Assembly: GCA_963575745.1 (NCBI GenBank)
Contig: CAUYUJ010021153.1
Coordinates: forward strand, 61,001 to 125,000
Reading direction: 5' to 3'
Length of the DNA stretch: 64,000 bases
Source: Prorocentrum cordatum
Lineage: Eukaryota > Sar > Dinophyceae > Prorocentrales > Prorocentraceae
How positions within the stretch are numbered: position 1 is the stretch's first letter; every line of letters begins with the position of its first letter. Under the pieces are notes generated by a model. The model had not been told where the DNA came from. It searched no databases and saw only the letters and a program-made list of their open reading frames with translations. Made by a program: the position numbers and the translations under genes. Below are positions 17,026 to 62,961 of this stretch, piece after piece.

Positions 17026-18202
17026 CTGGGCGCCGGCGGTAAACCGTCAACCTTTCTTACCGCCGGGGGAACTCGTAGAGCTTCCTGACCATATATAATG
17101 TCGAAAAAAATTACAGAGAACGAATAGTTGTTCAGCCTAAGCGATTTCAGACCTCTCGATGCAACAGCCAAACGCCCCTCATGCTTCTGGATCGTTTTCT
17201 GTGCGCACGAGCTCCGTAGCTCTCCTACAGCCCGAGTTACGTGCGAAAATCGACAGCACCTCTCAAGATCACTCGAACAATACAAATAGTTTCGCGAATC
17301 TAGCTCGAGTATCAGACCGAGTTCAGACCTCTGAATGCAACAGGCAGGCGCGCCTGCTGTCTCCGAATCGATTTCTGTGATTACCAGCCCTGCAGCCCCC
17401 TTACAGCCCGAGTTAAGTGCAGAAAACCGACAGCACCTCTGAAGACGACTCGAACAATACGAATAGTTTCGCGGACCTAGCTCAGACAGCAGACCGAGCT
17501 CAGAGCTCTGAATGCGACAGGCGGACGCGACTGATGTCTCCGAATCGATTCCAGTGATTACCAGCCCTGCAGCCCCCTTACAGCTCGAGTTAAGTGCAGA
17601 AAACGGACAGCACCTCTCAAGATGACTCGAAGAATACGAATAGTTCGCGAACCTAGCTCGGGCAGCACACCGAGTTCTGAGCTCTGGATTTGGCAGGCGG
17701 ACGCGCCTGATGTCTCCAAATCGATTCCTGTGAGCACGAGCCCTGTAGCCCCCCTACAGCCCGAGTTAAGTGCAGAAAACTGGCAACACATCTCAAGATG
17801 ACTAGAACAATACGAATAGTTTCGCGAACCTAGCTCGGCCAGCAGACCGAATTCAGACCTCTGGATGGAACACACGAACGCGCCTGATGATTTGCAATCG
17901 ATTTCTGTGAGAATGAGCTCTGTAGCTGCCCTACAGCTCGAGTTAAGTACAAAATATCGATAACGCGTATCAAGATGACTCGAAACAGCCGATCCCGCAA
18001 CGACGCTTTTTTGCAGAAATATTTACCCGATCGAGCTGAGATCAAGATGGCGAGCGGGAATAAGATCGAATATGGTGGGAACAAATACTAGAGCTCAAAC
18101 GAACTGTTGAATTCCGAGAACAAAATTTTCAACCGACCAAAAGTCAGCAAAAGGTCCGTCGAGATTTTTCTTGCCAACTAGCTCTCCAGCGCGCCGGAAT
18201 TA
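17026..18202 (+). mobile_element. L-class element H, opened in an S tail; closing piece not found
   Basis: Head CTGGGCGCCGGCGG, then CATATATAATGTCG. Units start near 17110, 17272, 17450, 17627 and 17804 (spacing 162-178), with a tail from 17975. At 1177 bp it reaches the tail site GGAATTA|CTC, where element I begins. The remaining ~43 bp of tail is missing; another L head sits at the expected spot (28328). Confidence 0.88.
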
Positions 18203-19321
18203 CTGGGCGCCGGCGGTAAACCGTCAACCTTTCTTACCGCCGGGGGACTCGTAGAGCTTCCTGACAATATATAATGTCGAAAAAATTGAGAGAACGAGGT
18301 TTTTCAGCCCAAGCGATTTCAGACCTCTCGATGCAACAGCCGAACGCCCCCGATGCTTCTGGATTGTCTTCTGTACGAGCTCTGTAGCTCTCCTACAGCC
18401 CGAGTTATGTGCGTAAATCGACAGCAACCCTGAAGATAACTTGAACAACACGAATAGTTTGGCAAACCTAGCTCGAGTATCAGACCAAGTTCAGGCCTCT
18501 GAATGCGACAGGCGGACGCGTCTGATGTCTCCGAATCGATTCCTGTGATTACCAGCCCTGCAGCCCCCCTACAGCCCGAGTTAAGTGCAGAAAACAGACA
18601 GCATCTCAGGATGACTCGAACAATACGAATTGTTTCGCGGATCTAGTTCGGGCAGCAGACCGAGTTCCAGGCTCTGGATTCGAAAGGTGGACGCGCCTAA
18701 TGTCTCCGAATCGATTCCTGTGACTACCAGCACTGTAGCCCCCCCTACAGCCCGAGTTAAGTGCAGAAAACCGACAGCAGCTCTCAAGATGACTCGAATA
18801 ATACGAATAGTTTCGCGATTCTAGAGCGGGCAGCAGACCGAGTTCAGAGCTCTGGATTCAACAGACAAACGCGACTGATGACTCTGAATCGGTTTCTATA
18901 AGTATCAGCTCTGTAGCTGTCATATAGCTCGATTTAAATACAGAAAACCGGGAACGCCTATCAAGATGACTCGAATAATACAAATAGGTTTGCGGACCTA
19001 GCTCGGCTAGCAGACCGAGTTCAGACCTCTGGATGCAACAGACGAACGCGCCTGATCATTCTGAATCGATAAGATGTGCTTACCAGCTCTGGAGCTGTCC
19101 TGTGTCTCGAGTTAAGTCCAATATACCGACAGCGCGTATCAAGATGACTCGAAACAGCCGATCCCGCCTGGACGTTTTTTGGCCGTAAAAGGTACCCGAT
19201 CGAGCTGAGATCAAGATGGCGAGCGGGAATAAGATCGAATATCACGGGAAAAAATACTAGAGCTCCAACGAATGGTTGAATTTCGAGAACAAAATTTCCA
19301 ACCGACCAAACGACATCAAAA

Positions 19322-21757
19322 CTGGGCGCCGGCGGTAAACCGTCAACCTTTCTTACCGCCGGGGGACTCGTAGAGCTTCCTGACAACATATAATGTCGGA
19401 AAAAAATTGCAGAGAACGAATAGTTTTTCAGCCCAAGCGATTTCAGACCTCTCGATGCAACAGCCGAACGCCGCCGATGCTTCTGGATTGTCTTCTCTAC
19501 ACGCTCTGTAGCTCTCCTACAGCCAGAGTTACGTGCGTAATTCGACAGCACCTCTCAATATGATTCGAACAAAACGAAAAGTTTGGCAAACCCAGCTCGA
19601 GTATCAGACCGAGTTCAGACCTCTGAATGCGACAGGCGGACGCGTCTGATGTCTCCGAATCGATTCCTGTGATTACCAGCCCTTGAGCCCCCCTACAGCC
19701 CGAGTTAAGTGCAGAAAACCGACAGCACCTCTCAGGATGACTCGAACAATACGAACAGTTTCGCGGACCCAGCTTGGGCAGCAGACCGAGTTCCGAGCTC
19801 TGAATTCGACGCGGACGCGCCTGATGTCTTCAAATCGATTCCTGTGACCACCAGCACTGTAGCCCCCCTACAGCCCGAGTTAAGTGCAGAAAACCGACAG
19901 CACCTCTCAAGATCACTCGAACGATAAGAATAGTTTCGCGATTCTAGATCGGGCAGCAAACCGAGTTCAGAGCTCTCGATTCAAGAGACAAACGCGACTG
20001 ATGATTCTGAATCGGTTTCTGTAAGTATCAGCTCTGTAGCTGTCCTATAGCTCGAGTTAAATACAGAAAACCGAGAGCGCCTGTCAAGATGACTCGAATA
20101 ATACGAATAGGTTTCCGGACCTAGCTCGGCTAGCAGACCGAATTCAGACCTCTGGATGCAACAGACGAACGCGCCTGATCATTCTGAATCGATAAGGTGT
20201 GCTTACCAGCTCTGTAGCTGTACTGTATCTCGAGTTAAGTCCAATATACCGACAGCGCGTATCAAGATAACTCGAAACGGCCAATCCCGCCGCAGTGCTT
20301 TTTGGCAGTAAAAGGTACGCGATCGAGCTGAGATCAAGATGGCGAGCGGGAAAAAGATCGAATATCACGGGAAAAAATACTAGAGCTCCAACGAATGGTT
20401 GAATTTCGAGAACAAAATTTTCAACCGACCAAAAGTCACCAAAAGGTCCGTCGAGATTTTTCTTGCCAACTAGCTCTCCAGCGCCCCGGAATTACTGGGC
20501 GCCGGCGGTAAACCGTCAACCTTTCTTACCGCCGGGGGACTCGTAGAGCTTCCTGACCATATATAATGTCGAAAAAAATTGCAGAGAACAAATAGTTTTT
20601 CAGCCTAAGCCATTTCAGACCTCTCGATGCAACAGCCGAACGCCCCTGATGCTTCACGATCGTGCGCACGAGCTCCGTATCTCTCCTACAGCCCGAGCTA
20701 CGTGCGAAAATCGACAGCACCTCTCAAGATCACTCGAACAATACAAATAGTTTCGCGAATCTAGCTCGAGTATCAGACCGAGTTCAAACCTCTGAATGCA
20801 ACAGACGGACGTGCCTGATGTCTCCGAATCGATTCCTGTGATTACCAGCCCTGCAGCCCCCTTACAGCCCGAGTTAAGTGCAGAAAACCGACAGCATCTC
20901 TGAAGATGACTCGAACAATACGAATAGCTTCACGGACCTAGCTCGGGCAGCAGACCGACTTCAGAGCTCTGAATGCGACAGGCGCACGCGACTGATGTGT
21001 CCGAATCGATTCCAGTGATTTCCAGCACTGCAGCCCCCTTACAGCTCGAGTTAAGTGCAGAAAACAGACAGCACCTCTCAAGATGACTCGAAGAATACGA
21101 ATAGTTTTGCGGACCTAGCTCGAGCAGCAAACCGAGTTCAGAGCTCTGGAATTGGCAGGCGGACGCGTCTGATGTCTCCGAATCGATTCCTGTGAGTACG
21201 AGCCCCGTAGCTCCCCTACAGCCCGAGTTAAGTGCAGAAAACTGACAGCACCTCTCAAGATGACTCGAACAATACGAATAGTTTCGCGAACCTAACTCGG
21301 GCAGTAGACGAAGTTCAGACCTCTAGATAGAACAGACGAACGCGCCTGATGATTCGCAATCGATTCCTGGGAGAATGAGCTCTGTAGCTGCCCTACAGCT
21401 CGAGTTAAGTACAAAATACCGACAACGTGTATCAAGATGATTCGAAATAGCCGATCCCGCCGCGACGCTTTTTTGCAGAAATATTTTCCCGATCGAAATG
21501 AGATTAAGACAACGAGCGGGAATAAGATCGAATATGGTCAGAAAAAATACTAGAGCTCAAACGAATTTTGTTGAATCTCGAGAACAAAATTTTCAACCGA
21601 CCAAAAGTCACCAAAAGGTCCGTCTAGATTTTTCTTGCCAACTGGCTCTCCAGCGCGCCGGAATTACTCTTAAGCTTCCAGCAACTAGCTAAGGGAAGCT
21701 CTACGAGTTACTCTTCAGCTTCCAGCAACAACTTGCTAAGGGAAGCTCTACGAGTTA
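19322..21757 (+). mobile_element. L-class element J (1220 bp net), contains K
   Basis: Pieces 19322-20494 (1173) and 21711-21757 (47). Join: GGAATTA + CTCTTCAGC. Closes CTACGAGTTA at 21757. Confidence 0.92.
20495..21710 (+). mobile_element. L-class element K, uninterrupted (1216 bp)
   Basis: A complete copy and the simplest reference for the class: head hairpin, CATATATAATGTCG, six units (about 20590, 20745, 20912, 21088, 21266 and a tail unit at 21440), GATCCCGCC, ACTAGAGCTCAAACG, TTCTTGCCAACTGG, CTTAAGCTTCCAGC, CTACGAGTTA. It has no coding frame that I accept. Confidence 0.93.
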
Positions 21758-22357
21758 TGTCCGTCGAGATTTGTCTTGCCAACTGGGCGCCGGCGGTAAA
21801 CCGTCAACCTTCCTTACCACCGGGGGACTCGTAGAGCTTCCTCACCATATATAATGTCGAAAAAATCGCAGAGAACGAATAGCTTTTCAGCCTAAACGAT
21901 TTCAGACCTCTCGATGCAACAGCCAAACGCCCCTTATGCTTCAGGATCGTTTTCTGTGCGCACGAGCTCCGTAGCTCTCCTACAGCCCGAGTTACGTGCG
22001 AAAATCGGCAGCACCTCTCAAGATCACTCGAACAATACAAATAGTTTCGCGAATCTAGCTTGAGTATCAGACGAGTTCAGACATCTGAATGCAACAGGCG
22101 GGCGCGCCTGATGTCTCCGAATCGATTCCTATGATTACCAGCCCTGCAGCCCCCTTACAGCCCGAGTTAAGTACAGAAAATCGACAGCACCTCTGAAGAT
22201 GACACGAACAATACGAATAGTTTCGCAGACCTAGCTCGGGCAGCAGGCCGAGTTCAGGGCTCTCAATGCGACAGGTGAACGCGACTGATGTATCCGAATC
22301 GATTCCAGTGATTACCAGCCCTGCAGCCCCCTTACAGCTCGAGTTAAGTGCAGAAAA

Positions 22358-23577
22358 CTGGGCGCCGGCGGTAAACCGTCAACCTTCCTTACCGCCGGGG
22401 GACTCGTAGAGCTTCCTGAGCATATATAATGTCGAAAAAAATTGCAGAGAACGAATAGTTTGTCAGCCTGAACGATTTCAGACCTCTCGATGCAACAGCC
22501 AAACGCCCCTCATGCTTCTGGATCGTTTTCTGTGCGCACGAGCTCCGTAGCTCTCGTACAGCCCGAGTTACGTGCGAAAACCGACAGCACCTCTCAAGAT
22601 CACTCGAACAATACAAATAGTTTCGCGAATCTAGCTTGAGTATCAGACGAGTTCAGACATCTGAATGCAACAGGCGGACGCGCCTGATGTCTGCGAATCG
22701 ATTCCTGTGATTACCAGCCCTGCACCCCCCTTACAGCCCGAGTTAAGTGAAGAAAATCGACAGCACCTCTGAAGATAACTCGAATAATACGAATAGTTTC
22801 GCGGACCTAGCTCGGGCAGCAGGCCGAGTTCAGGGCTCTGAATGCGACAGGTGGACGCGATTGATGTCTCCGAATCGATTCCAGTGATTACCAGCACTGC
22901 AGCCCCCTTACAGCTCGAGTTAAGTGCAGAAAACGGACAGCACCTCTCAAGATGACTCGACGAGTACGAATAGTTTTGCGAACCTAGCTCGGGCAGCACG
23001 CCGAGTTCCGAGCTCTGGATTCGGCAGGCAGACGCGCCTGATGTCTCCGAATCGATGCCTGTGAGTACGAGCCCTGTAGCCCCCCTACAGCCCGCGTTAA
23101 GTGCAGAAAACTGTCAGCACCTCTCAAGATGACTCCAACAACACGAATAGTTTCGCGAACCTAGCTCGGGCAGCAGAGCGAGTTCAGACCTCTAGATGGA
23201 ACAGGCGAACGCGCCTGATGATTCGCAATCGATTTCTGTGAGAATAAGCTCTGTAGCTGCCCTACAGCTCGAGTTAAGTACAAAATACCGACACCGCGTA
23301 TAAAGATGACTCGAAACAGCCGATCCCGCCGCGATGCTTTTTTGCAGAAATATTTACCCGATCGAGCTGAGATAAAGAAGGCGAGCGGGAATAAGATCGA
23401 ATATGGTCAGAAAAAATACTAGAGCTCAAACGAATTGTTGAATTTCGAGAACAAAATTTTCAACCGACCAAAAGTCACCAAAAGGTCCGTCGAGATTTTT
23501 CTTGCCAACTAGCTCTCCAGCGCGCCGGAATTACTCTTAAGCTTCCAGCAACTAGCTAAGGGAAGCTCTACGAGTTA
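22358..23577 (+). mobile_element. L-class element M, uninterrupted (1220 bp), inserted mid-unit
   Basis: Sits inside a satellite unit of element L instead of a tail, so it is the cleanest view of the element ends: left flank GCAGAAAA, element CTGGGCG to GAGTTA, right flank CGGACAGC. No duplication is seen beyond an ambiguous single A. Confidence 0.94.
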
Positions 23578-24177
23578 CGGACAGCACCTCTCAAGATGAC
23601 TCGACGATTACGAAAAGTTTCGCGGACCTAGCTCGGGCAGCACACCGAGTTCTGAGCTCTGGATTCGGCAGGCGGACGCGCCTGACGTCTTCGAATCGAT
23701 TCCTGTGAGTACGAGCCTTGTAGCCCCCCTACAGCCCAAGTTAAGTTAAGAAAACTGACAGCACCTCTCAAGATGACTCGAACAACACGAATAGTTTCGC
23801 GAACCTAGCTCGGGCAGCAGACCGAGTTCAGACCTCTAGATGGAACAGACGAACGCGCCTGATGATTCGCAATCGATTTCTGTGAGAATGAGCTCTGTAG
23901 CTGCCCTACAGCTCGAGTTAAGTACAAAATACCGACACCGCGTATAAAGATGACTCGAAACAGCCGATCCCGCCGCGATGCTTATTTGCAGAAGTATTTA
24001 CCCGATCGAGCTGAGATAAAGAAGGCGAGCGGGAATAAGATCGAATCTGGTCAGAAAAAATACTAGAGCTCAAACGAATTGTTGAATTTCGAGAACAAAA
24101 TTTTCAACCGACCAAAAGTCACCAAAAGGTCCGTCGACATTTTTCTTGCCAACTAGCTCTCCAGCGCGCCGGAATTA

Positions 24178-25391
24178 CTGGGCGCCGGCGGTAAACCGTC
24201 AACCTTCCTCACCGCCGGGGGACTCGTAGAGCTTCCTGAGCATATATAATGTCGAACAAAATTGCAGAGAACGAATAGTTGTTCAGCCTAAACGATTTCA
24301 GACCTCTCGATGCAACAGCCAAACGCCCCTCATGCTTCTGGATCGTTTTCTGTGCGCACGAGCTCCGTAGCTCTCCTACAGCCCGAGTTACGTGCGAAAA
24401 CCGACAGCACCTCTCAAGATCACTCGAACGATACAAATAGTTTCGCGAATCTAGCTCGAGTATCAGAGTTCAGACATCTGAATGCAACAGGCGGACGCGC
24501 CTGATGTCTCCGAACCGATTCCTGTGATTATCAGCCCTGCAGCCCCCTTACAGCCCGAGTTAAGTGCAGAAAATCGACAGCACCTCTGAAGATGACTCGA
24601 ACAATGCGAAGAGCTTCGCGGACCTAGCTCGGGCAGCAGGCCGAGTTCAGGGCTCTGAATGCGACAGGTGGACGCGACTGATGTCTCTGAATCGATTCCA
24701 GTGATTACCAGCCCCGTAGCCCCCTTACAGCTCGAGTTAAGTACAGAAAACGGACAGCACCTCTCAAGATGACTCGACGAATACGAATAGTTTTGCGAAC
24801 CCAGCTCGGGCAGCACACCGAGTTCCGAGCTCTGGATTCGGCAGGCGGACGCGCCTGATGCCTCCGAATCGATTCCTGTGAGTACGAGCTGTAGCCCCCC
24901 TACAGCCCGAGTTAAGTGCAGAAAACTGTCAGCACCTCTCAAGATGACTCCAACAACACGAATAGTTTCGCGAACCTAGCTCGGGCAGCAGAGCGAGTTC
25001 AGACCTATAGATGGAACAGACGAACGCGCCTGATGATTCGCAATCGATTTCTGTGAGAATGAGCTCTGTAGCTGCCCTAGAGCTCCAGTTAAGTACAAAA
25101 TACCGACAACGCGTATCAAGATGACCGAAACAGCCGATCCCGCCGCGATGCTTTTTGGCAGTAAAAGGTACCCGATCGAGCTGAGATCAAGATGGCGAGC
25201 GGGGATAAGATCGAATAAAGTAGAAAAAAAACTAGAGCTCAAACGACTTGTTGAATTTCGAGAACAAAATTTTCAACCGGCCAAAAGTCAGCAAAAGGTC
25301 CGTCGAGATTTTTCTTGCCAACTAGCTCTCCAGCGCCCCGGAATGACTTAAGCTTCCAGCATTAACTTGCTAAGGGAAGCTCTACGAGTTA
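24178..25391 (+). mobile_element. L-class element N, uninterrupted (1214 bp)
   Basis: Opens in element L at GGAATTA and closes with CTACGAGTTA at 25391. Its tail has the CCAGCATTAACTTGC variant. Confidence 0.92.
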
Positions 25392-26634
25392 CTCTTAAGC
25401 TTCCAGCAACTAGCTAAGGGAAGCTCTACGAGTTACTAGCTCTCCAGCGCCCCGGAATTACTGGGCGCCGGCGGTAAACCGTCAACCTTTCTTACTGCCG
25501 GGGGACTCGTAGAGCTTCCTGAGAACATATAATGTCGAAAAAAATGCATAGAACGTGTAGATTTTCAGCCCAAGCGATTTGAGACCTCGATGCAACAGCC
25601 GAACGCCCCCGATGCTTCTGGATTGTCTTCTCTACGAGCTCTGTAGCTCTCCTAGAGCCCGAGTTACGGCGTAAATCGACAGCACCTCTCAAGATGGCTC
25701 GAACAATAAGAATAGTTGGCAAACCTAGCTCGAGTATCAGACCGAGTTCAAGCCTCTCAATGCGACAGGCGGACGCGTCTGATGTCTCCGAATCGATTCC
25801 TGTGATTACCAGCCCTGCAGCCCCCCTACAGCCTCAGTTAAGTGCAGGAAACCGACAGCACCTCTCAGGATGACTCGAGCAATACAAATAGTTTCGCGGA
25901 CCTAGTTCGGGCAGCAGACCGAGTTCCGAGCTCTGGATTCGACAGGCTGACGCGGCTGATGACTCTAAATCGATTCCTGTGACTACCAGCACTGTAGCCC
26001 CCATACAGCCCGAGTTAAGTACAGAAAACCGACAACATCTCTCAAGATCACTCGAACAATACGATAGTTTCGCGATTAGCAGACCAAGTTCAGAGCTCTG
26101 GACTCGACAAACAAACGCGCATGATGTTTATGAATCAGTTTCTGTAACTAACAGCTCTGTAGCGGTCATACAGCTCGAGAAAAGTACAGAAAACCGAGAG
26201 CGCCTGTCAAGATGACTCGAATAATACGAACAGATTTGCGGACTTAGCTCAGCTAGCAGACCGAGTTAAGACCTCTGGATGGAACAGACGAACGCGCATG
26301 ATCATTCTGAATCGATAACCTGTGCTTACCAGCTCTGTAGCTGTCCTCTATCTCGAGTTAAGTTCAAAATACCGACAACGCGTATGAAAATGACTCGAAA
26401 CGGCCGATCCCGCCAGTGTGCTTTTTGGCAGTAAAAGGTACCCGATCGAGCTGAGGTCAAGATGGAAAGCGGGAATAAGATCGAATATCACGGGAAAAAT
26501 ACTAGAGCTCAAACGAATGGTTGAATTTCGAGAACAAAATTTTCAACCGACAAAAAGTCATCAAAAGGTCCGTCGAGATTTTTCTTGCCAACTAGCTCTC
26601 CAGCGCGCCGGAATTACTCTTAAGCTTCCAGCAA

Positions 26635-28250
26635 TGGGAACCGGCAGTAAACCGTCAACCTGGTTACCGCCGGGAACCTCGTAGAGCTCTTTTCTTGCAC
26701 GGCGATCGTCAGAACACATGAAGAAAGCTTCTCGAGCGAAAAACGAAAAACCCGGAAAATAACGTTTTTCTGTTTTTATCCAACGTCGGTTCCTCCAAGT
26801 GTTTTGATAGTAATAATGCAGCTACGGACATGAAAATTTTACTAGCGGACGCGCCATAACCCACTACAGGTGCGAAAAATCTGCTTTCTCAGAATGAATT
26901 GTCAAATATCCTTGAATTCGTTGCAAGACCACCCAAAAATTACCCCTTGTCCTTTCTGGCCGGGTCGACCAACTGGGCGCCGGCGGTAAACCGTCAACCT
27001 TTCTTACCGCCGGGGGACTCGTAGAGCTTCCTGACCATATATAATGTCGGAAAAAATTGCAGAGAACGAATAGTTTTTCAGCCTAAGCGATTTCAGACCT
27101 CTCGATGCAACAGCCAAACGCCCCTCATGTTTCTGGATCGTTTCCTGTCCGCACGAGCTCCGTAGCTCTCCTACAGCCCGAGTTACGTGCGAAAATCGAC
27201 AGCACCTCTGAAGATCACTCGAACAATATGAATTGTTTGGCAAACCTAGCTCGAGTATCAGGCCGAGTTCAGACCTCTCAATGCAACAGGCGGACGCGCC
27301 TGATGTATCCGAATCGATTCCTGTGATTACCAGCCCTGCAGGCCCCTTACAGCCCGAGTTAAGTGCAGAAAACCGAGAGCACCTCTGAAGACGACTCGAA
27401 CAATACGAATAGTTTCGCAGACCTAGCTCAGGCAGCAGACCGAGTTCAGAGCTATGAATGCGACAGGCGGACGCGACTGATGTCTCCGAATCGATTCCAG
27501 TGATTACCAGCCCTGCAGCCCCCTTACAGCTCGAGTTAAAGTGCAGAAAACGGACAGCACCTCTCAAGATGACTCGAAGAATACGAATAGTTCGCGGACC
27601 TAGCTTGGGCAGCACACTGAGTTCTGAGCTCTCGATTTGGCAGGCGGACGCGCCTGATGTCTCTAAATTCATCCCTGTGAGCACGAGCCCTGTAGCCCCC
27701 ATACAGCCCGAGTTAAGTGCAGAAAACTGACAGCACCTGTCAAGATGACTCGAACAATACGAATAGCTTCGCGAACCTAGCTCGGGCAGCAGACCGAATT
27801 CAGACCTCTGGATGGAACAGACGAACGCGTCTGATGATTTGCAATCGATTCATGTAAGAATGAGCTCGGTAGCTGCCCTACAGACCGAGTTAAGTACAAA
27901 ATACCGACAACGCGTATCAAGATGACTCGAAACAGCCGATGCCGCCGCGACGCTTTTTTGCAGAAATATTTACCCGAGCGAGCTGAGATTAAGACAGCGA
28001 GCGGGAATAAGATCGAATATGGTGGGAAAAAAAATAGAGCTCAAACGAATTGTTGAACTCCGAGAAAAAATTCAACCGACCAAAAGTCAGCAAAAGGTCC
28101 GTCGAGATTTTTCTTGCCAACTAGCTCTCCAGCGCGCCGGAATTACTCTTAAGCTTCCAGCAACTAGCTAAGGGAAGCTCTACGAGTTACTAGCTTCACT
28201 CCGGCCCGGAATTCCTCCAGCTCATCGACAACGAAGAGCTCTACGAGGTA
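26635..28250 (+). mobile_element. S-class element P (399 bp net, GGAACC head), contains Q
   Basis: Pieces 26635-26972 (338) and 28190-28250 (61). Join: GGTCGACCAA + CTAGCTTCACTCC. The head starts TGGGAACC directly after AA, lacking the usual leading C. Closes CTACGAGGTA. Confidence 0.92.
26973..28189 (+). mobile_element. L-class element Q, uninterrupted (1217 bp), innermost of the nest
   Basis: Inserted at the main S tail site of P. Its close at 28189 starts four closings in a row (Q, P, O, I), each matched to its opener by sequence and by net length. Confidence 0.94.
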
Positions 28251-28614
28251 TAACTTGCTAAGGGAAGCTCTACGAGTTACTCTTAAGCTTCCAGCAATAA
28301 TTTGCTGAGGCAAAGCTCTACGAGTTACTGGGCGCCGGCGGTAAACCGTCAACCTTTCTTTTTTGCGTCTTTGCTGGGACCGTCTTGGCCACTAAGGCCA
28401 GGTCCAACAAAGTATCAGGCGAAACAGAGCCTCTTATTTATCACGCAAGCAGTCAGCTCTTATACCACACAGCGAAGCTGAAGGAATAAAGAGAAACGCA
28501 TGCCGCAATGACACAATCAAACGCAAAGCACACAAAGATAAAACGACTGAGTCGGTGAACAGCGAAGCTGTTGGAATAAACAAGAACACAGAAAAAGAAG
28601 AAACAATGTGTGAC

Positions 28615-28941
28615 TTATCCCTGCGAATGATCAAAGAAGGTCTGCACTACCTGTGGGAGCACAACGCATACGCGCTCCGCCGCTGATAGTTCCGTACCTG
28701 TAACAGCGGCGCTCGGTGGCAGACACCAAGCCTCAAGATACACATCCTTGAAAATGATGTCGGTCCGCGAGAAGATATATTTGTTACGCAGACCAATCTG
28801 TATCCACACCCACCACAGGCACTTCCGCGGCAAAGCCCTCATCAAAGCTGGCTTTGATAAGGCAAGGATAATGTTACGACGTGAGAGCCAGGAGACCTGG
28901 CCAAGAACTGAACATGCACACACTGAATTCTTAGAGCACAA
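28615..28941 (-). pseudogene. RNase H-like N-terminal-half remnant of LINE
   Basis: 108-codon frame. WIQIGLRNKYIF and DIIFKDVYLEAW align with LINE-5 WIQIGL and QIIFKDVYVCSF; AAVTGTELSAAERV carries the conserved Glu. The strand-1 segment (PCLIKASFDEGFAAEV) lies just upstream in another frame, so a frameshift separates it. Arg (CGT) here occupies the position of the in-frame TGA in LINE-5. Confidence 0.75.
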
Positions 28942-29023
28942 ACAAAAGAGACTATGCCATCACAATCAACAATCCAATACAATAAGTACGGAATGAAAGG
29001 AAGCACTCGAAGAATACGAATAT

Positions 29024-29953
29024 CTACCACAGAGGCCAAACCTGAGATTTACACCTTCGTTCACAGTCCGTCAACGTCCTACCGTACCTATACACTTCGT
29101 CAAACACGATGTTGGCGCCTTTAGAGCTCTTAGCAGGCTTGGCACTGCTATGATATCGTTGGCCTTTGCCTCTGCCTTTGCGGTGCCCTCGTACATCCCC
29201 TTTTCCATCAGAACGCTTGGAATCCGGAGGAACAGCTTGGAACTCCTCCTCCGACTGACGCACAGTCCTGGAGACGTCCATCCGGACACGGACAAACGCA
29301 TCAGAACCCGGATTCGATATCCCATTGAGCGTGACGGGACGATTCAGACACCCCTGGGACGCTCCTGACAAGGCGTGGCTATCAGGATCAGCCTGCACGT
29401 TCGGAGAAAACTCCGCTCTCGAGGATGCCTCCAGCTCCTCCTCAGCCTCCACAGTCACTTTCCGAAGAAGAACTCCTGAAGCTCCTCCCTCCATCCCAAC
29501 GACCATCTCTGTCTGACAGCCGACTTCACAATGAAAGTCCACAACATCCGCACAAGAATTCTCCGAATGTGTCGTAACGGCCGCCTCCTCCTTGGGTAGC
29601 ACAGTCAGGCAAGCATCATCCGTCTGCACTCCTGAGTCAACAAGGGAACGACAAGAAAGAGTCTCCGAGATAGTCGCAACGGTAGCCTCCACCTCCTCCT
29701 CCGCCAAGCGTGCATCAACCGTCTGCACTCCAACATCAACCAGCGATACAGAAGCCTGCACTCCAATACCTACATCAACCAGCGACTCAGAAGCCTGCAT
29801 ACGGCAAGAAAGATTCTCCGAAACAGTCGTAATGTCAGCCTCCTCCTCCAAACTGCGTTTAACAACAGGTGGATCGCGCAACAAGAGATAATCTAGAACC
29901 AAATCGGCAGTCGCCCGCTCCAGCCCTGGTGGTGGGAAACACGTAGGTGGCAC
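29024..29953 (-). CDS. Hypothetical LINE-derived protein with GVQT repeats
   Basis: 309 codons from a GTG (no ATG nearby, so the start is uncertain). I do not recognise it. It is acidic and repetitive: three imperfect ~45-residue repeats pair a (V/I)SE(N/T)LSC block (44-50, 95-101 and a diverged HSENSC) with SLVDxGVQT (69-77, 103-111) and CEVGCQTEM (142-150). The C-terminus is basic (GHRKGRGKGQRYHSSAK), which could bind nucleic acid. It lies inside the deleted LINE, upstream of the RNase H remnant on the same strand. It may be the remains of an ORF1 joined to the 3' end by deletion; it shows no clear similarity to LINE-5 ORF1. Confidence 0.45.
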   Translation of the reverse strand: MPPTCFPPPGLERATADLVLDYLLLRDPPVVKRSLEEEADITTVSENLSCRMQASESLVDVGIGVQASVSLVDVGVQTVDARLAEEEVEATVATISETLSCRSLVDSGVQTDDACLTVLPKEEAAVTTHSENSCADVVDFHCEVGCQTEMVVGMEGGASGVLLRKVTVEAEEELEASSRAEFSPNVQADPDSHALSGASQGCLNRPVTLNGISNPGSDAFVRVRMDVSRTVRQSEEEFQAVPPDSKRSDGKGDVRGHRKGRGKGQRYHSSAKPAKSSKGANIVFDEVYRYGRTLTDCERRCKSQVWPLW

Positions 29954-31696
29954 AAACCATCCAGAGGCAAACGAATAGGTAAATGCACACAGTATCCGTT
30001 TTGAACAGCCAGCGCCCGACGCATGATGCGAGCACTTGCACTCCGTACGTGTGGCATAGCGAAAGATTGCAGAGGGGGACTCGTAGAGCTTCCTGACAAT
30101 ACATGATGTCGAAAAAAAATGCAGAGAACGAGTAGTATTTCAGCCCAAGCGATTTCAGACCTCTCGATGCAACAGCCGAACGCCCCCGATGCTTCTGGAT
30201 TGCCTTGTGTACGAGCTCTGTAGCTCTCCTACAGCCCGAGTTACGTGCGTAAATCGACAGCACCTCTGGAGATGACTCGAACAATACGAATAGTTTGGCA
30301 AACCTAGCTCGAGTATCAGACCGAGCTCAGGCCTCTGAATGCGACAGGAGGACGCGTCTGATGTCTCCGAATCGTTTCCTGTGATTACCAGCCCTGCAGC
30401 CCCCCTACAGCCCGAGATAAGTCAGAAAACCGACACCATCTCAGGATGACTCGAATAATACGAATAGTTTCACGGACCTAGTTCGGACAGCAGACCGAGT
30501 TCCGAGCTCTGGATTCGACAGGCGGACGCGCCTGATGTCTCGGAATCAATTCCTGTGACTACCAGCACTGTAGCCCCTCTACAATCCAAGTAAAGTACAG
30601 AAAACGGACAGCACCTCTCAAGATGACTCGAACAATACGAATAGCTTCGCGATTCTAGAGCGGGCAGCAGACCGAGTTCAGCTCTGGATTCAACAGACAA
30701 ACGCGACTGATGACTCTGAATTCGTGTCTGTAAGTATCAGCTCTGTAGTTGTCATATAGCTCGAGTTAGGTACAGAGAACCGAGAGCGCTTGTCAAGATG
30801 ACTCGAACAATACGAATAGGTTTGCGGACCTAGCTCGGTTAGGAGACCGATTCCAGACCTCTGGATGTAACAGACGAACGCGCCTGATCATTTTGAATAG
30901 ATAAGGTGTGCTTACCAGCTCTGTAGCTGTGCTGTATCTCGAGGTAAGTCTAATATACCGAAGCGCGTATCAAGAACTCGAAATGGCCGATCCCGCCTGG
31001 ACGCTTTTTGGCAGTAAAAGGTACCCGATCGAGCTGAGATCAAGATGGCGAGCGGGAATAAGATCGAATATGGTCAGAAAAAATACTAGAGCTCGAACGA
31101 ATTGTGGAATTTCGAGAACAAAATTTTCAACCGACCAAAAGTCACCAAAAGGTCCGTCGAGATTTTTCTTGCCAACTAGCTCTCCAGCGCCCCGGAACTG
31201 GGAACCGGCGGTACACCGTCAATCAGGCAACCGCCGGACACCTCGTAGGGCTCTTCTCTTGCACAGCGCTTCTCGGAACATGAAGGAAGCTGCGAAACCG
31301 AGAGCCGAAAAATTCGAAAAATCACGATTTTTTTGTTTTCATCCAGAGTCGGTTCGTTCAACGGTTTCGATAATAATGCTGCACCTACGGACCTGAATTT
31401 AACTGGCAGACGCAGCATAACCCACTCCCTCCCTCCGTCTCCGCCTGCTCAGAGAAAGAGCTTATGAGACGACTCAGAACAAACGCATTTTTTGGTGTCG
31501 ATGCAAAGTCGGTTCCTCCAAGTGTTTTGATAATAATACTGTCCCTAGAGCGATAAGAAATTTACCAGCAGGTGCCCCATAGCTCACTACAAAAATGAAA
31601 ATCTCACTTCTGGGAACAAACTTAAAAATTTTGCATAAACTGAAACAAAAACCGACCCTCGGTTACCACATCCTCTCTTTTCGTCGGGCCAGCCAA

Positions 31697-36770: not shown

Positions 36771-37241
36771 TTGTCAAATATCTTCAAAAACAAAAACAAA
36801 AAAAAAAAAAAAAAAAAAAAAAACTTTGGTTTTTTGGCCGGGTCGACCAGCGCCGGAATTCCTCCAGCTCATCGATGCCGAAGAGCTCTACGAGGTACTA
36901 GCTCCACCCCGAGCCGGAATTCCTCTAGCTCATCGATAACGAAGAGATCTACGAGGTATTCCTCTTAGCTCTTTGCTGAAGAGCCCTACGAGGTACCTCG
37001 TAGATCTTCCGCATCGATGAGCTAGAGGAATTCCGGCGTGGGGTGGAGCTAGTTGGTCGGCCCGACCAGAAAAGAAGATGTGATAACTTTCGGTCGGTTT
37101 TGCGAAAATTTGAAAGTTGTTTGACAATTCATTTTAAGAAATCAGTTTTTTACTCCGAGCATCAGTATCTTGATTTTTTTCTGCGAGCAGCTCAGCTCGT
37201 TCGTTTCTATCCAAACACTGGGCGCCGGCGGTAAACCGTCA

Positions 37242-37250
37242 ACCTTCGTT
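37242..37250 (+). repeat. LINE fragment target-site duplication, left copy
   Basis: ACCTTCGTT, equal to 37544-37552, in the hairpin loop of CC. An uninterrupted loop of this type is at about 50480. Confidence 0.88.
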
Positions 37251-37543
37251 TTTTGCGTCTTTGCTGGGACCGTCTTGGCCACTAAGGCCAGGTCCAACAA
37301 AGTATCAGGCGAAACAGAGCCTCTTATTTATCACGCAAGCAGTCAGCTCCTATACCACACAGCGAAGCTGTAGGAATAAAGAGAACCACATGCCCGCAAT
37401 GACACAATCAAACGCAAAGCGCACAAAAGACAAACGAATGAGTCAATGAACAGCGAAGCTGTTGGAATAAATAGGAACACAGAAACAGATGAGAGACCTT
37501 CGTTACCACCTTCGTTCGTGGAACGGAACACATGAACAGGAAC
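37251..37543 (-). mobile_element. LINE 3'-end fragment, 293 bp
   Basis: Nearly the same as 28361-28600 (GCGTCTTTGCTGGGACCG, GGCCACTAAGGCC, CACGCAAGCAGTCAGC, CAGCGAAGCTG). Non-coding. Near its 5' end there is an extra ACCTTCGTTACC at 37496, so three copies of the target word occur here. Confidence 0.88.
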
Positions 37544-37552
37544 ACCTTCGTT
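37544..37552 (+). repeat. LINE fragment target-site duplication, right copy
   Basis: ACCTTCGTT, continuing into the right hairpin arm TTACCGCCGGGGG. Confidence 0.88.
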
Positions 37553-38899
37553 ACCGCCGGGGGACTCGTAGAGCTTCCTGACAGCATATAATGTCGAAAA
37601 AAATTGAACTGATGAAAAAGTTTTTCAGCCCAAGCAATTTCAGACCTCTCCGATCTAACAGCCGAACGCCCCCGATGCTTCTGGATTCTCTACTGTACGA
37701 GCTCTGTAGCTCTCCTACAGCCCGAGTTACGTGCGTAAATCGACAGCACCTCTCAAGATGACTCGAACAACACGAATTGTTTGGCAAACCTAGCTCGAGT
37801 ATCAGACCGAGTTCAGACCTCTGCATGCGACAGGCAGACGCGTCTGATGTCTCCGAGTCGATTCCTGTGATTACCAGCCCTGCAGCCCCCCCTACAGCCC
37901 GAGTTAAGTGCAGGAAACCGACAGCACCTCTCAGGATCACTCGAACAATACGAATAGTTTCGCGGACCTAGTTCGGGCAGCAGACAGAGTTCGGAGCTCT
38001 GGATTGGATAGCCGGACGCGTCTGATGTCTCTGAATCGATTCCAGTGATTACCAGCCATGCAGCCCCCCCACAGCCCGAGTTGAGTGCAGAGAACCGACA
38101 GCATCTCTCAAGATGACTCGACCAATACGAATAGTTTCGCGATTCTGGATCGGGCAGCAGACCGAGTTCAGAGCATTGGACAGAGAACGGCCACTGATGA
38201 TTCTGAATCAGATTCTGTACGTATCAGCTCTGTAGCTGTCCTGTAGCTCGAGTTAAGTACAGAAAATCGAGAGCGTCTGTCAAGATGACTCGAATAATAC
38301 GAATAGGTTTGCGGACCTAGCTCGGCTAGCAGACCGAGTTCAGACCTCTGGGTTCAACGGGCGAACGCGCCTGACCATTCTGAATCGATTAGCTGTGCTT
38401 ACCAGCTCTGTAGCTGTTCTAAAGCTCGAGTTATCTTGAGAAAACCAACAGCGCGTGACAAGATGACCCGAAACGGTCGATCCCGCCTGGACGCTCTTTG
38501 GCAGTAAAAGGTACCCGATCGAGCTGAGATCAAGATGACGAGCGGGAGTAAGATCGAATATCACGGGAAAAAATACTAGAGCTCTAACGAATTTTTGAAT
38601 TTCGAAAACAAAATTTTCAACCGACCAAAATTCCTCAAAATGCCCGTCGAGATTTTTCTTGCCAACTAGCTCTCCAGCGCCCCGGAATTACTCTTAAGCT
38701 TCCAGCAACATCTTGCTGAGGGAAGCTCTAAGAGTTATTTGGAGGAACCGAAGTATCGTTCACACCGAGAAATGCAATTATAATGTTTTTCTAGATATGC
38801 TCTAAGAAGCTCTCTTCAAATCTGAGCACTCTTACGCGTGCAAGGAGCTCTGCGAGGTTCCCGGCGGTGACCAGGTCGACGGTCCACCGCCGGCGCCAG

Positions 38900-43073: not shown

Positions 43074-44135
43074 CTGGGCGCCGGCGGTAAACCGTCAACC
43101 TTTGTTACCGCCGGGGAACTCGTAGAGCTTCCTGACCATACATAATGTCGAATAAATTGTAGAAAACGAACAGTTTTTTGCAGCCTAAGCGATTTCAGAC
43201 CTCTCGATGCAAGACGAACAGCACCTCTCAAAATCACTCGAACAATACAAATAGTTTCACGAATCTAGCTCGAGTATCGTTCAGACCTCTGAATGCAACA
43301 GACGGACCCGCCTGATGTCTTCAGATCGATTCCTGCGATTACTAGCCCTGCAGACCCCTGACAGTGCAGAAAACCGAGAGCACCTCTGAAGACGACTCGA
43401 ACAATACGAATAGTTTCGCGTATCTAGCTTGGGCAGCAGATCGAGTTCAGAGCTCTGAATGCGACAGGCGGACGCGACTGATGTTCCGAATCGGTTCCAG
43501 TGATTACCAACCCCGCAGCCCCCTCACAGTTCGAGTTAAGTGCAGAAAAGGGACAGCACCTCTCAAGATGACTCGAAGAACACGAATAGTTGTGCTGACA
43601 TTCCTCGGGCAGCACACCGAGTTCTGAGCTCTGGATTTGGCAGACGGACGCGCCTGATGTCTCCAAATTGATTCCTGCGAGTAGGAGCCTGTAGGCACCC
43701 TACAGCCCGAGTTAAGTGCAGAAAACTGACAGCACCAAGATGATTCGTATAATACGAACTTTCGCGAACCTAGCTCGTGCAGCACACCGATTTCAGACCT
43801 ATGGATGGGACAGACGAACGCGTCTGATGATTTGCAATCGATTTCTGTGATAATCAGCTCTGTAGCTGTCCTGTATCTCGACTTAAGTCCAATATACCGA
43901 GAGCGCGTATCAAGATGACTCGAAACGGCCGATCCCGCTACAGTCCTTTTCGATAGTAATATTCAACCGAGCTGAGATCCAGATGGCGAGCGGGAAAAAG
44001 ATCGAATATCACGGGAAAAAATACTAGAGCTGTAACGAATGTTCAAATTTTGAGAACAAAATTTTCAACTGAGCAAAAGTTAGCAAAAGTTCCGTCGAGA
44101 TTTTTCTTGCTTACTAGCTCTCCAGTGCGCCGGCA
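43074..44135 (+). mobile_element. L-class element II, deleted in first unit
   Basis: Head then first unit cut from CTCGATGCAA to GACGAACAGCACC near 43208. Tail cut at GCGCCGGCA. 1062 bp. Confidence 0.83.
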
Positions 44136-47387: not shown

Positions 47388-48142
47388 AGGGTTTTCTGCA
47401 CATAAGTCGAGCTAAAGGACAGTACAGAGCTGATACGTACAGAATCTGATTCAGAATCATCAGTGGCCCTTGCCTGTTGACTCCAGAGCTCTGAACTCGG
47501 TCTGCTGCCCGATCTAGAATCGCAAAAACTATTCGCATTGTTCGAGTTATCTTGAGAGATGCTGTTGGTTCTCTGCACTTAACTCGGGCTGTAGGGCAGC
47601 TGCATGGCTGGTAATCACTAGAATCGATTCGGAGACATCAGGCGCGTCCGCCTTTCGAATCCAGAGCTTCGAACTCTGTCTGCTGCCCGAACTAGGTCTG
47701 CAAAAATATTCGCATTGTTCGAGTCATCCTGACAGGTGCTGTCGGTTTCCTGCACTTAACTCGGGCTGTATGGGGGGGCTGTTGGGCTGGTAATCACAGG
47801 GTCGATTCGCAGACATCAGACGCGTCCACCTGTCGCATGCAGAGGCCTGAACTCGGTCTGACACTCGAGCTAGGTTTGCCAAACTATTCGTATTATTCGA
47901 GTCATCTTGAGAGGTGCTGTCGATTTTCGCACGTAACTCGGGCTGTAGGAGAGCTACAGAGCTCGTACAGAAGAGAATCCAGATGCATCGGGGGCGTTCG
48001 GCTGTTGCATCCGAGAGGTTTGAAATTGCTTGGGCTGAAAAACTATTTCTTCTGTGTAATTTTTTCTACATAATATGTTGTCAGGAAGCTCTACGAGTCC
48101 CCCGGCGGTAACAAAGGTTGACGGTTTACCGCCGGCGCCCAG
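47388..48142 (-). mobile_element. L-class element, minus strand, head at 48142
   Basis: Units read in reverse (CGCATTGTTCGAGT at about 47535 and 47712). The reverse head ends ...GCCGGCGCCCAG at 48142 followed by T. The tail side is removed at the inversion joint. Confidence 0.83.
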
Positions 48143-48381
48143 TTTTACTCCGAGCATTGACATATAAACTTTGTTCTCTGAGCAGCTCAGCCCTCTAGAG
48201 CCATTTTTAGTACCAGTTCACTTGGAGGAACCGACTTCAGGTTGACTCCGAAAAATCTGAACTTGAAGTTTTTGTAGAAAAGCTTCCAGAAGCTCCCGCT
48301 TTGATCCTGAGCTTTCTTACGGATGCAAGGAGCTCTACGAGGTTCCCGGCGGTGACCAGGTTGACGGTTCACCGCCGGCAT
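48143..48381 (-). mobile_element. S-class element, minus strand, cut in body
   Basis: Head at 48381 (...CCGGCATCAG then T); body to GGAGTAAAA on its own strand, where the L head at 48142 enters. Confidence 0.78.
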
Positions 48382-48383
48382 CA

Positions 48384-48788
48384 GTATACCTCGTAGAGCT
48401 CTTCGGCATCGATGAGCTAGAGGAATTCCGGCGCGGAGTGGAGCTAGTTGGTCGACCCGGCCAGAAAGGACAAAGTGATAACTTGTGGGTGGTTTTGCAA
48501 TCTTTTGAAAGATATTTGACAATTGATTTTGGGAAAGCAGATTTTTCGCACCTGTAGACGATTATGAAGGCCTCTCTGTCTTAGTATGAGCTCTGTAGGC
48601 GCACTTTTACTATCAAAACACTTGGGGGAACCATCTTCATGTCGACACGAAAAAAAAAAACAATTTTTCACTTTTTCGAGAAATGCTTTGTGAAGATCTC
48701 TCTTTCGACTCTGAGCACTCTTACGCGTGCAAGGAGCTCTACGAGGTTTCCGGCGGTGACCAGGTTGACGGTTCACCGCCGGCGCCAG
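48384..48788 (-). mobile_element. S-class element, minus strand, full length (~405 bp)
   Basis: From the reverse tail TACCTCGTAGAGCTC to the head ...GGCGCCAG at 48788. Body includes a short A run at about 48650. Confidence 0.87.
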
Positions 48789-48924
48789 TCAAAACACTTG
48801 GGGGAACCATCTTCATGTCGACACGAAAAAATCAATTCTTCTTTTCTTCGACTCCGAGCGCTCCTACGCGTGTTAGGAGCTCTACGAGCTTCCCGGCGGT
48901 GACCAGGTTCACCGCCGACGCCTG
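48789..48924 (-). mobile_element. S-class 5' part, minus strand
   Basis: Head near 48924 with a shortened loop (GGTGACCAGGTTCACCGCC), and body to CCAAGTGTTTTGA, where the preceding element enters. Confidence 0.72.
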
Positions 48925-49263
48925 TTGGCCCACCCGGCCGAGGCGGACAATGTGACAACTTTTGGGTGGTTTTGCAAATATTTGAAAGATATTTGACAAT
49001 TTATTTTGAGAAACCAGATTTTTCGCACCTGTAGTAGGTTTTGCCGCGTCTGCCAGTAAAATTTTCAGGTATGTAGGTGCAGTATTACTAACAAAAGACT
49101 TGGGGGAACCAACGTTGGGTGAAAACAGAAAAACGTGATTTTTTGATTTTTTCGTTTCTCGATCCAGAAGCTCTCTTGATGTATTACGAGAAGCGCGGTG
49201 TGAGAAAAGAGTCTACGAGGGTCCCGGCGGCAACCTGGTTGACGGTTTACCGCCGGTTCCCAG
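48925..49263 (-). mobile_element. S-class element, minus strand, 339 bp to tail site
   Basis: GGAACC-type head ending ...GGTTCCCAG at 49263, then T. The other end is CCGGGTGGGCCAA on its strand, the standard S insertion site. Confidence 0.83.
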
Positions 49264-50069
49264 TAATTCCGGCGCGCTGGAGAGCTAGTTGGCAAGAGAA
49301 ATCTCGACGGAACTTTTGGTGACTTTTGGTCGGTTGAAAATTTTGTTCTCGAAATTCAACAATTCGTTTGAGCTCTAGTATTTTTTCCCGTGATAGTCGA
49401 TCTTATTCCCGCTCGCCATCTTGATCTCAGCTCGATCGGGTGAATATTACTATCGAAAAGCACTGTGGCAAGATCGACCGTTTCGAGTCATCTTGATACA
49501 CGCTGACAGTTTTCTGAACATAACTCGAGCTTTAGGACAGCTACAGAGCTGGTAAGGACAGCTAATCGATGTAGAATGATCAGGCGCGTCGCCTGTCGAA
49601 TCCAGAGGTCTGAACTCGGTCTGTTAGCCGAGCTAGGTCCGCAAACCTATTCGTATTATTCGAGTCATCTTGACAGGAACTCTCGGTTTTCTGTACTTAA
49701 CTCGAGCTGTAGGACAGCTACAGAGCTCATACATACAGAAACTGATTCAGAATCATCAGTTACGTTTGTCTGTCGAATCCACAGCTCTGAACTAGATCTG
49801 CTGCCCGATCTAGAATCGCGAAATTATTCGTATTGATCGAGTCATCTTGAGAAGTGCTCTCGGTTCTTCGCTCAACTCGCGCTGAGGGGAGCTACAGTGC
49901 TTCTTCTCACAGAAATCGTTTTGAAGAGATCAGGCGCGTCCGCCTGTCGATCCAGAGCTCGGAACTGCTGCCCGAACTAGGTCCGCGAAACTATTGTATT
50001 GTTCGAGTCATCCTGAGAGGTGCTGTCGGTTTTCCGCACTTAACTCGGGCTGTAGGGGGGCTAGAGCGT
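49264..50069 (-). mobile_element. L-class element, minus strand, 3' part
   Basis: Reverse tail (TAATTCCGGCGCGCTGG, TTGGCAAGAG) followed by units at about 49500, 49680 and 49840. Orientation flips back at about 50070 (GGGGGGCTAGAGCGTCTC). Confidence 0.8.
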
Positions 50070-62931: not shown

Positions 62932-62961
62932 CTTGATCCCCGACAGCCGGTGCCGATTCGG

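What the first reader, a model, noticed from the sequence alone, without database searches (positions are those of the whole stretch)
18203..28327. A 10-kb nest of mobile elements that parses like perfectly balanced brackets
Treating A|CTGG-hairpin heads as openers and CTACGAG(T/G)TA tails as closers, the segment resolves as I{J{K} L{M N} O{P{Q}}}. Net lengths are I 1217, J 1220, K 1216, L 1219, M 1220, N 1214, O 1203, Q 1217 (L class) and P 399 (S class). Each split pair rejoins into sequence found intact elsewhere, with no leftover bases. Copies that look 3'-truncated are therefore whole elements interrupted by younger ones, and the order of insertion can be read directly.
Basis: seen in the sequence. 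Interest (0 to 1): 0.95.

Follow-up and report, generated by a model that had tools for sequence, protein, structure and literature searches.

The report
Self-nested Helentron-like mobile DNA elements
Nine copies of non-coding mobile DNA have inserted one inside another so cleanly that the order can be read like brackets; the nesting is real, belongs to a known kind of rolling-circle transposon, and recurs in this genome at a few preferred sites and almost always in one direction.

Summary
Sequential insertion without target duplication explains this; local tandem amplification does not.

In the minus-strand sense the elements have the anatomy of HINEs (non-autonomous Helentron/Helitron2): subterminal inverted repeats, a 3' hairpin, a palindromic 5' end and ~177-bp central repeats. 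No autonomous partner was linked.

New here is scale and regularity. Insertions pile up at the base of the family's own 5' hairpin (1,556 exact openings genome-wide) and are orientation-locked (187 same, 5 opposite, 63 neither).

The perfect balance is local. The window's 10 other plus-strand openings at this hotspot have no closer in view, and exact closers number 406 genome-wide, which suggests that many interrupted copies lack their 5' piece. The copy before I opens at the same site without a visible close, and a new head abuts I's last base. The proposed age test was uninformative (6 of 13), and orthologous empty sites could not be checked.

The parts
18203..19321 (-).
21758..21782 (-). 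I, piece 2
25436..25460 (-). I, piece 3
28280..28327 (-). I, piece 4 (canonical 5' terminus)
19322..20494 (-). J, piece 1 (inside I; subfamily A)
21711..21757 (-). J, piece 2 (5' terminal palindrome; A-type sequence)
20495..21710 (-). K, uninterrupted 1,216-nt element inside J at host site 1173 (subfamily B)
21783..22357 (-). L, piece 1 (inside I; subfamily B)
23578..24177 (-). L, piece 2
25392..25435 (-). L, piece 3 (5' terminus)
22358..23577 (-). M, uninterrupted, inside L's central repeats
24178..25391 (-). N, uninterrupted, inside L at site 1173; B body with an A-like 5' end
25461..26634 (-). O, piece 1 (inside I at site 1173; subfamily A)
28251..28279 (-). O, piece 2 (5' terminus)
26635..26972 (-). 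P, piece 1 (short S class, inside O)
28190..28250 (-). P, piece 2 (5' terminus)
26973..28189 (-). Q, uninterrupted, inside P at S-class hotspot 338
20495..20560 (-). example of canonical 3' end: subterminal inverted repeat, then a 10-bp-stem hairpin, 7 nt, end CCCAG
   Evidence: fold not better than many shuffles, z -1.29; sequence
21664..21710 (-). example of canonical 5' end: TAA, 41-nt hairpin, TAA; preferred self-insertion sites lie at its base
   Evidence: (z -4.67)
17026..18202 (-). preceding copy, stops at site 1173 directly before I; its 5' piece was not found in the window
28328..28360 (-). head of the next copy, directly abutting I's last base; interrupted inside its hairpin by a retrotransposon-like insert (about 28361-30073)

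Best explanation
The segment is a stack of eight successive insertions (J, K, L, M, N, O, P, Q) into an older copy (I) and into each other, by a high-copy, non-coding, HINE-type (Helentron/Helitron2-like) rolling-circle element and its short sister class. Each insertion lies between a purine and T in the canonical (minus) strand or nearly so, with no target duplication and no lost bases (shown). Transposition as single-stranded DNA by a Rep/Helicase from an autonomous partner is inferred from the anatomy; no partner was linked. The sites most often hit are CCAA^CTAG, GGAA^TTAC and GGAATTA^CTC in plus-strand letters; the last is the base of the family's own 5' terminal hairpin, where the terminal TAA recurs (shown). 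I infer that the enzyme reads that hairpin base as a site. Guests lie in the host's orientation (shown), so nests grow at one end; the cause of the orientation lock is inferred.
For: Exact bookkeeping and joins. 14 of 31 complete elements contiguous in a host vs mean 2.1 by re-pairing. Host resumptions agree with upstream openers: 31 of 67, label shuffles 13.4 sd 2.3 max 20 of 500; 24 of the 31 have no unclosed opener inside, and two long-span matches look wrong. Hotspot: of 98 L left arms, 51 interrupted exactly at 1170 or 1173, 43 intact, 4 other; genome-wide exact openers 1,556 and closers 406, reversed-pattern controls 0. Orientation: 187 same, 5 opposite, 63 no family flank among 255 heads, while one L element offers 143 A^Y sites and 116 of the opposite sense. 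HINE anatomy against passages of PMC4067079, PMC7492417 and PMC5148889; 5' end folds better than all 200 shuffles. Neighbouring units are on average no more alike (90.2%, n 19) than units from different loci (89.0%, sd 3.7, n 1681). The genome encodes Helitron_like_N proteins (151 matches from 150 scored of 1,615 first-look candidates).
Against: No autonomous element with these ends was found: in 20 Rep loci with 1.5-kb flanks only loose (3-mismatch) likenesses to the subterminal repeat occur and none to the tail or palindrome, and their proteins hit nothing in the 264 kb at E 1e-3. Flank preference is not TT on both sides as reported for HINEs. The 3' hairpins fold no better than many shuffles (z -1.29 and -1.25, 25 of 200 as good). 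Openers outnumber closers, so simple insertion does not explain all arrays. The age test was 6 of 13, and O, inside I, has a longer terminal branch than I. Three of 19 neighbouring pairs are 94.9-97.4% alike. Random positions in the same loci are family sequence in 266 of 400 draws, so self-insertion as such is not shown to exceed availability; only site and orientation are.
Confidence: 0.85

Rival explanations
1. The array arose by rolling-circle or recombination-driven tandem amplification, and the bracket look is a by-product of partial units.
For: Heads exceed tails genome-wide as exact patterns (27-nt heads 18,574, 18-nt tails 10,670). A 3.4-kb composite is present twice in tandem in L028 (91.2-99.7% alike in 300-column blocks). 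Own-end junctions (tail end directly followed by a head) occur (6 of 166 heads). Three of 19 neighbouring pairs are 94.9-97.4% alike.
Against: Gap-free resumption of hosts at six different coordinates; neighbouring units on average no more similar than unrelated ones; a nearly complete opposite-strand S copy inside an L copy in L017.
Confidence: 0.06
2. Insertion builds the nests, but composites are then mobilised: copying starts at an inner 5' end, runs past the inner 3' end and stops at the host's 3' end. This yields units with several heads and one tail, which would explain openers without closers elsewhere.
For: Openers exceed closers (181:67; 1,556:406). End bypass and composite Helitrons from self-insertion are described in PMC5148889 (passages). 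Composite present twice in L028.
Against: No composite was shown at two unrelated sites with its host closed round it; unequal crossing-over would give the L028 structure too; 10-kb loci centred on heads exaggerate the deficit; the authors of PMC5148889 expect extra 5', not 3', ends from self-insertion.
Confidence: 0.3
3. Assembly error has stacked copies of a repeat.
For: High-copy repeat in a 4.1-Gb assembly of 21,875 contigs.
Against: Joins are base-exact, L-class copies differ from each other by 4-15%, and nests with other host sites occur in other contigs. No reads were available to test it directly.
Confidence: 0.03
4. The elements are not HINEs but another class of DNA element without target duplication.
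For: No linked Rep/Helicase; flanks are R^T rather than T^T.
Against: Spacing of subterminal repeats (3 and 45 nt from the ends), 3' hairpin, inverted repeat beside the 5' subTIR, central repeats and lack of target duplication all fit.
Confidence: 0.15

Closest known systems
HINE / DINE-1 (non-autonomous Helentrons), PMC4067079 and PMC7492417 (passages seen)
   Same: Subterminal inverted repeats close to the 5' end and ~45 nt from the 3' end, 3' palindrome, inverted repeat next to the 5' subTIR, central tandem repeats, no target duplication
   Different: Flank preference R^T(T) rather than T-rich on both sides; I did not look for a microsatellite; partner unknown
FoHeli / Helitron2 of Fusarium, PMC5148889 (passages seen)
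   Same: Asymmetric terminal inverted repeats with hairpins; self-insertion, including at the 5' end, discussed by those authors
   Different: There one nested case and short multiple 5' termini in the passages seen; here hundreds of exact events at fixed sites, orientation-locked, and an excess of 3' rather than 5' ends
Canonical Helitrons (Helitron1), as described in PMC4067079 and PMC5148889 (passages)
   Same: No target duplication, hairpin near the 3' end, T after the 3' end
   Different: No 5' TC or 3' CTRR ends
Nested plant LTR retrotransposons (PMC6911290, listing and start of abstract only)
   Same: Nesting with regional preferences in the host element
   Different: Different class; what I saw mentions no base-exact self-hotspot or orientation lock

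Membership tests
HINE / Helentron non-autonomous | Subterminal inverted repeat 2-4 nt from the 5' end | tested here: met
   TAA then CTCGTAGAGCTTCC in the minus-strand sense (definition)
HINE / Helentron non-autonomous | Second repeat 38-60 nt from the 3' end, followed by a palindrome | tested here: met
   45 nt; hairpin CCGGCGGTAA/TTACCGCCGG ending 7 nt from the end; its folding energy does not stand out from shuffles (z -1.29)
HINE / Helentron non-autonomous | No target-site duplication | tested here: met
   8 of 8 joins without duplication
HINE / Helentron non-autonomous | Insertion in TT / T-rich target | tested here: inconclusive
   3' flank T in 92% and second T in 76% of 51 non-family left flanks; 5' flank G 56%, A 35% of 34 non-family right flanks (read on the minus strand)
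HINE / Helentron non-autonomous | Central tandem repeats or microsatellite (common, not universal) | tested here: met
   ~177-bp repeats
HINE / Helentron non-autonomous | Autonomous Rep/Helicase(/endonuclease) partner sharing the ends | tested here: inconclusive
Canonical Helitron (Helitron1) | 5' TC and 3' CTRR, insertion A^T | tested here: not met
   Ends are TA... and ...CCAG; sites are R^T, G^T oftener than A^T
Telomere-forming or subtelomeric element | Location next to telomere repeats with fixed polarity | tested here: inconclusive
   Polarity towards contig ends seen (lengths interpolated); the telomere-repeat searches did not complete

The most novel reading that the evidence does not exclude
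A rolling-circle transposon family that targets the base of its own 5' terminal hairpin on one DNA strand only, and so builds long, unidirectional, self-nested arrays whose 5' ends face outward towards contig (perhaps chromosome) ends: a rolling-circle counterpart of oriented telomeric retrotransposon arrays, with its own guild of LINEs that insert into its 3' hairpin loop.
Probability: 0.12. Interest if true: 0.85.

Novelty: new variant of a known kind. Interest (0 to 1): 0.52.

Why it matters
Exact, ordered self-insertions give a relative clock for a transposon family and a large set of natural empty and filled sites: 51 filled and 43 empty at one 4-nt hotspot in 264 kb, and 1,556 exact filled sites genome-wide. 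That makes two points about Helentron-like elements testable: what the target is, and on which strand insertion occurs. It also warns that 'truncated tandem copies' of such elements in repeat annotations may be interrupted whole elements, or composites, rather than satellites.

Tried and rejected
Age by terminal branch length: 6 of 13 pairs with the host older; rejected as uninformative, because the loci were chosen by similarity to I and only 83 sequences were used. A first stack parser with a shuffled-order null found 25 resumptions of 313 against a mean of 20.3 (max 26) by chance; it missed short pieces and its null was too permissive, so it was replaced. That early result did not favour my reading. 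Subfamily as a clock: no A guest in a B host among the pairs parsed there (only 2 guests in a B host), but the B copy before I goes against it. Autonomous partner in the Rep loci: none linked. Telomere repeats, dinoflagellate spliced leader (organism guess) and the intact-site count: searches did not complete. In one search the row for tails is an artefact (the motif also fits S heads read backwards) and is not used. In one search at least one S 'complete element' (L016 6273-6729) was measured to its host's tail. The 15.7-kb and 45-kb matches look like parser errors, because a nearer opener was missed.
Full report
Setting. The window lies in a 4.13-Gb eukaryotic assembly of 21,875 contigs, organism not named. 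Assembly size and contig number resemble the published Prorocentrum cordatum assembly (4.15 Gb, 22,724 scaffolds; passages of PMC10666404). That is only a guess; the published mean G+C (59.7%) is higher than this window's (47-58% in 2-kb steps), and the test I planned (spliced leader) did not complete.

Is the nest there? Yes. The hosts I, J, L and O, once their guests are skipped, align without gaps at the joins to uninterrupted copies; I repeated this for all eight joins with references from other contigs only. Two subfamilies are present: A (I, J, O; 90.6-92.3% alike) and B (K, L, M, N, Q; 91.6-95.8%), about 85% between them. The displaced terminal pieces look like the subfamily of the body to which the brackets assign them (A for I, J, O; B for L; alignment). 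This is only weak support, because N, an uninterrupted copy, is itself a mosaic: B body with A-like letters near its canonical 5' end.

What kind of element? Read on the minus strand, the copy starts TAA-CTCGTAGAGCTTCC, has an inverted repeat GGAAGCTT just inside, about 177-bp central repeats, then GGAAGCTCTACGAG, a 10-bp-stem hairpin and the end CGCCCAG. The two subterminal repeats lie 3 and 45 nt from the ends. This fits the description of HINEs, non-autonomous Helentrons, in the passages of PMC4067079 and PMC7492417, and the Helitron2 ends in passages of PMC5148889. Inserts leave no target duplication. The flanks are A before a head in 161 of 167 L heads and mostly C (42) or T (20) after 67 L tails, that is R^T in the canonical strand; HINEs are reported to prefer TT.

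How general is it? In the window plus 20 loci of 10 kb (264 kb, the loci chosen by similarity to the first 498 bases of I; 20 of the 40 best places), 31 complete elements were found and 14 lie exactly inside another copy; re-pairing flanks gives a mean of 2.1. Ten of the 14 are outside the window. Whole nests can be read elsewhere by eye, for example L016 4442-6840, where an S copy contains an L copy that contains an S copy with another S inside, all closed, and L020 (two L guests in one host). Among adjacent-fragment events, 31 of 67 closers match an upstream opener of the same class and coordinate, label shuffles 13.4 sd 2.3 max 20; 24 of these have no unclosed opener inside, and at least two of the other seven look like parser errors.

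Where do they insert? At few places. Of 166 L heads with enough flank, 115 have family sequence on the left; 69 of these sit at four sites (18 at 1170, 18 at 1173, 10 at 1148, 23 at S site 338). Of 98 L left arms reaching site 1170/1173, 51 are interrupted there, 43 intact, 4 other. Genome-wide the exact opener pattern (L-class guests) occurs 1,556 times and the exact closer pattern (L-class guests) 406 times, with 0 for the reversed controls. Site 1173 is the inner base of the family's own 5' hairpin, where the terminal TAA recurs; that 47-nt end folds better than all 200 shuffles (z -4.67), whereas the 3' hairpins do not stand out (z -1.29 and -1.25; 25 of 200 shuffles as good). Since random positions in these loci are family sequence in 266 of 400 draws, I claim preference for sites, not for self as such.

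In which direction? Of 255 heads of any class, 187 have family sequence on the left in the same orientation, 5 in the opposite and 63 neither. One L element offers 143 sites of the used dinucleotide type and 116 of the opposite sense, so site composition does not explain 187:5. A directional target, a single-stranded target exposed on one strand, or loss of inverted nests (which would form long palindromes) could. The listings also show contigs dominated by one strand: of 24 contigs with more than one opener among the 100 listed places, 21 are on one strand.

What does not fit. Openers exceed closers in the sample (51:16; 181:67) and genome-wide as exact patterns (1,556:406). Part of this is sampling, since loci centred on heads miss distant 5' pieces: head to tail exact counts are 92:36 in the sample but 18,574:10,670 in the genome, where the head pattern is the longer and so is likely under-counted. 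The copy at 17026-18202 stops at the hotspot just before I and I did not find its end, and another head starts at 28328 without a gap. Neighbouring units are on average not more similar than units from different loci (90.2%, n 19, vs 89.0%, n 1681), though three pairs reach 94.9-97.4%; this speaks against general local amplification, but L028 holds a 3.4-kb composite twice in tandem. Mobilised composites (several 3' ends, one 5' end) or deletions may be at work; I leave this open.

Ages. Terminal branches gave 6 of 13 pairs with the longer branch in the host; O is longer than its host I. The loci were drawn by similarity to I, which shortens I's branch, so I count the test as void rather than negative. 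The order of insertion rests on the joins alone. Orthologous empty sites in other strains could not be examined; intact copies of the hosts serve as paralogous empty sites.

Polarity. On contigs whose lengths I interpolate, arrays tend to point their 5' ends towards the nearer contig end: 39 contigs against 11 (openers, 1 tie), 55 against 21 (closers, 2 ties), and for contigs with a place within 12 kb of an end 12:0 and 20:4 (lengths interpolated and extrapolated from eight contigs; 4 and 6 of 100 places dropped because the position exceeds the estimated length). For the ten sampled contigs over 130 kb, of known length, the count is 9:1 (my tally; exception C6125). An assembly effect cannot be excluded, and telomere-repeat searches did not complete.

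Verdict. The finding is real and well read; the elements are HINE-like and the nesting is ordinary in kind (self-insertion of Helitrons is discussed in PMC5148889, passages). The hotspot at the element's own hairpin, the orientation lock and the scale are what I have not met in the papers seen (searches; listings, plus passages of PMC12628747, PMC4067079, PMC7492417 and PMC5148889).

Noticed in passing
window 28360, 37250, 58747, also about 3520 and 16203; L013, L015, L016, L018, L019, L020, L022, L023, L027: Retrotransposon-like inserts whose T-run (poly-A end on the minus strand) lies at one place inside the element's 3' hairpin loop (a few nt after CCGTCAACC): 16 of the 19 heads listed without a second hairpin arm (my reading of the letters), with several different sequences behind the T-run; at 37218-37560 a repeated ACCTTCGTT looks like a target duplication. 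A guild of site-specific LINEs may use this hairpin.
   Followed up: partly
window 59167-62961 (-): 1,264-aa open frame with a reverse-transcriptase match just below Pfam's cut-off (27.6 against 29.6 bits), next to one of these hairpin insertions; no relative among solved structures at E 0.1; a protein 94% identical over residues 400-1000 is held from ENA without a name.
   Followed up: partly
window 24178-25391: Element N is a mosaic of subfamily B with an A-like 5' end; the copy at 43074 is similar.
   Followed up: partly
L028 2266-5661 and 5662-9009: A 3.4-kb composite of several element pieces is present twice in tandem, 91.2-99.7% alike in 300-column blocks, each copy starting at a hotspot junction.
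   Followed up: partly
L017 3393-3785: A nearly complete S-class element in the opposite orientation inside an L copy, one of few exceptions to the orientation lock.
   Followed up: no
whole genome: Arrays are mostly on one strand per contig among the places listed, with the canonical 5' ends tending to face the nearer contig end; telomeric location or assembly effect not decided.
   Followed up: partly
window 47390-50062: A block of the same family in minus orientation amid plus-oriented copies.
   Followed up: no
window 28361-30073: The insert between head and body of the copy at 28328 overlaps a 371-aa minus-strand open frame (29024-30139) without a Pfam match at E 0.01.
   Followed up: no
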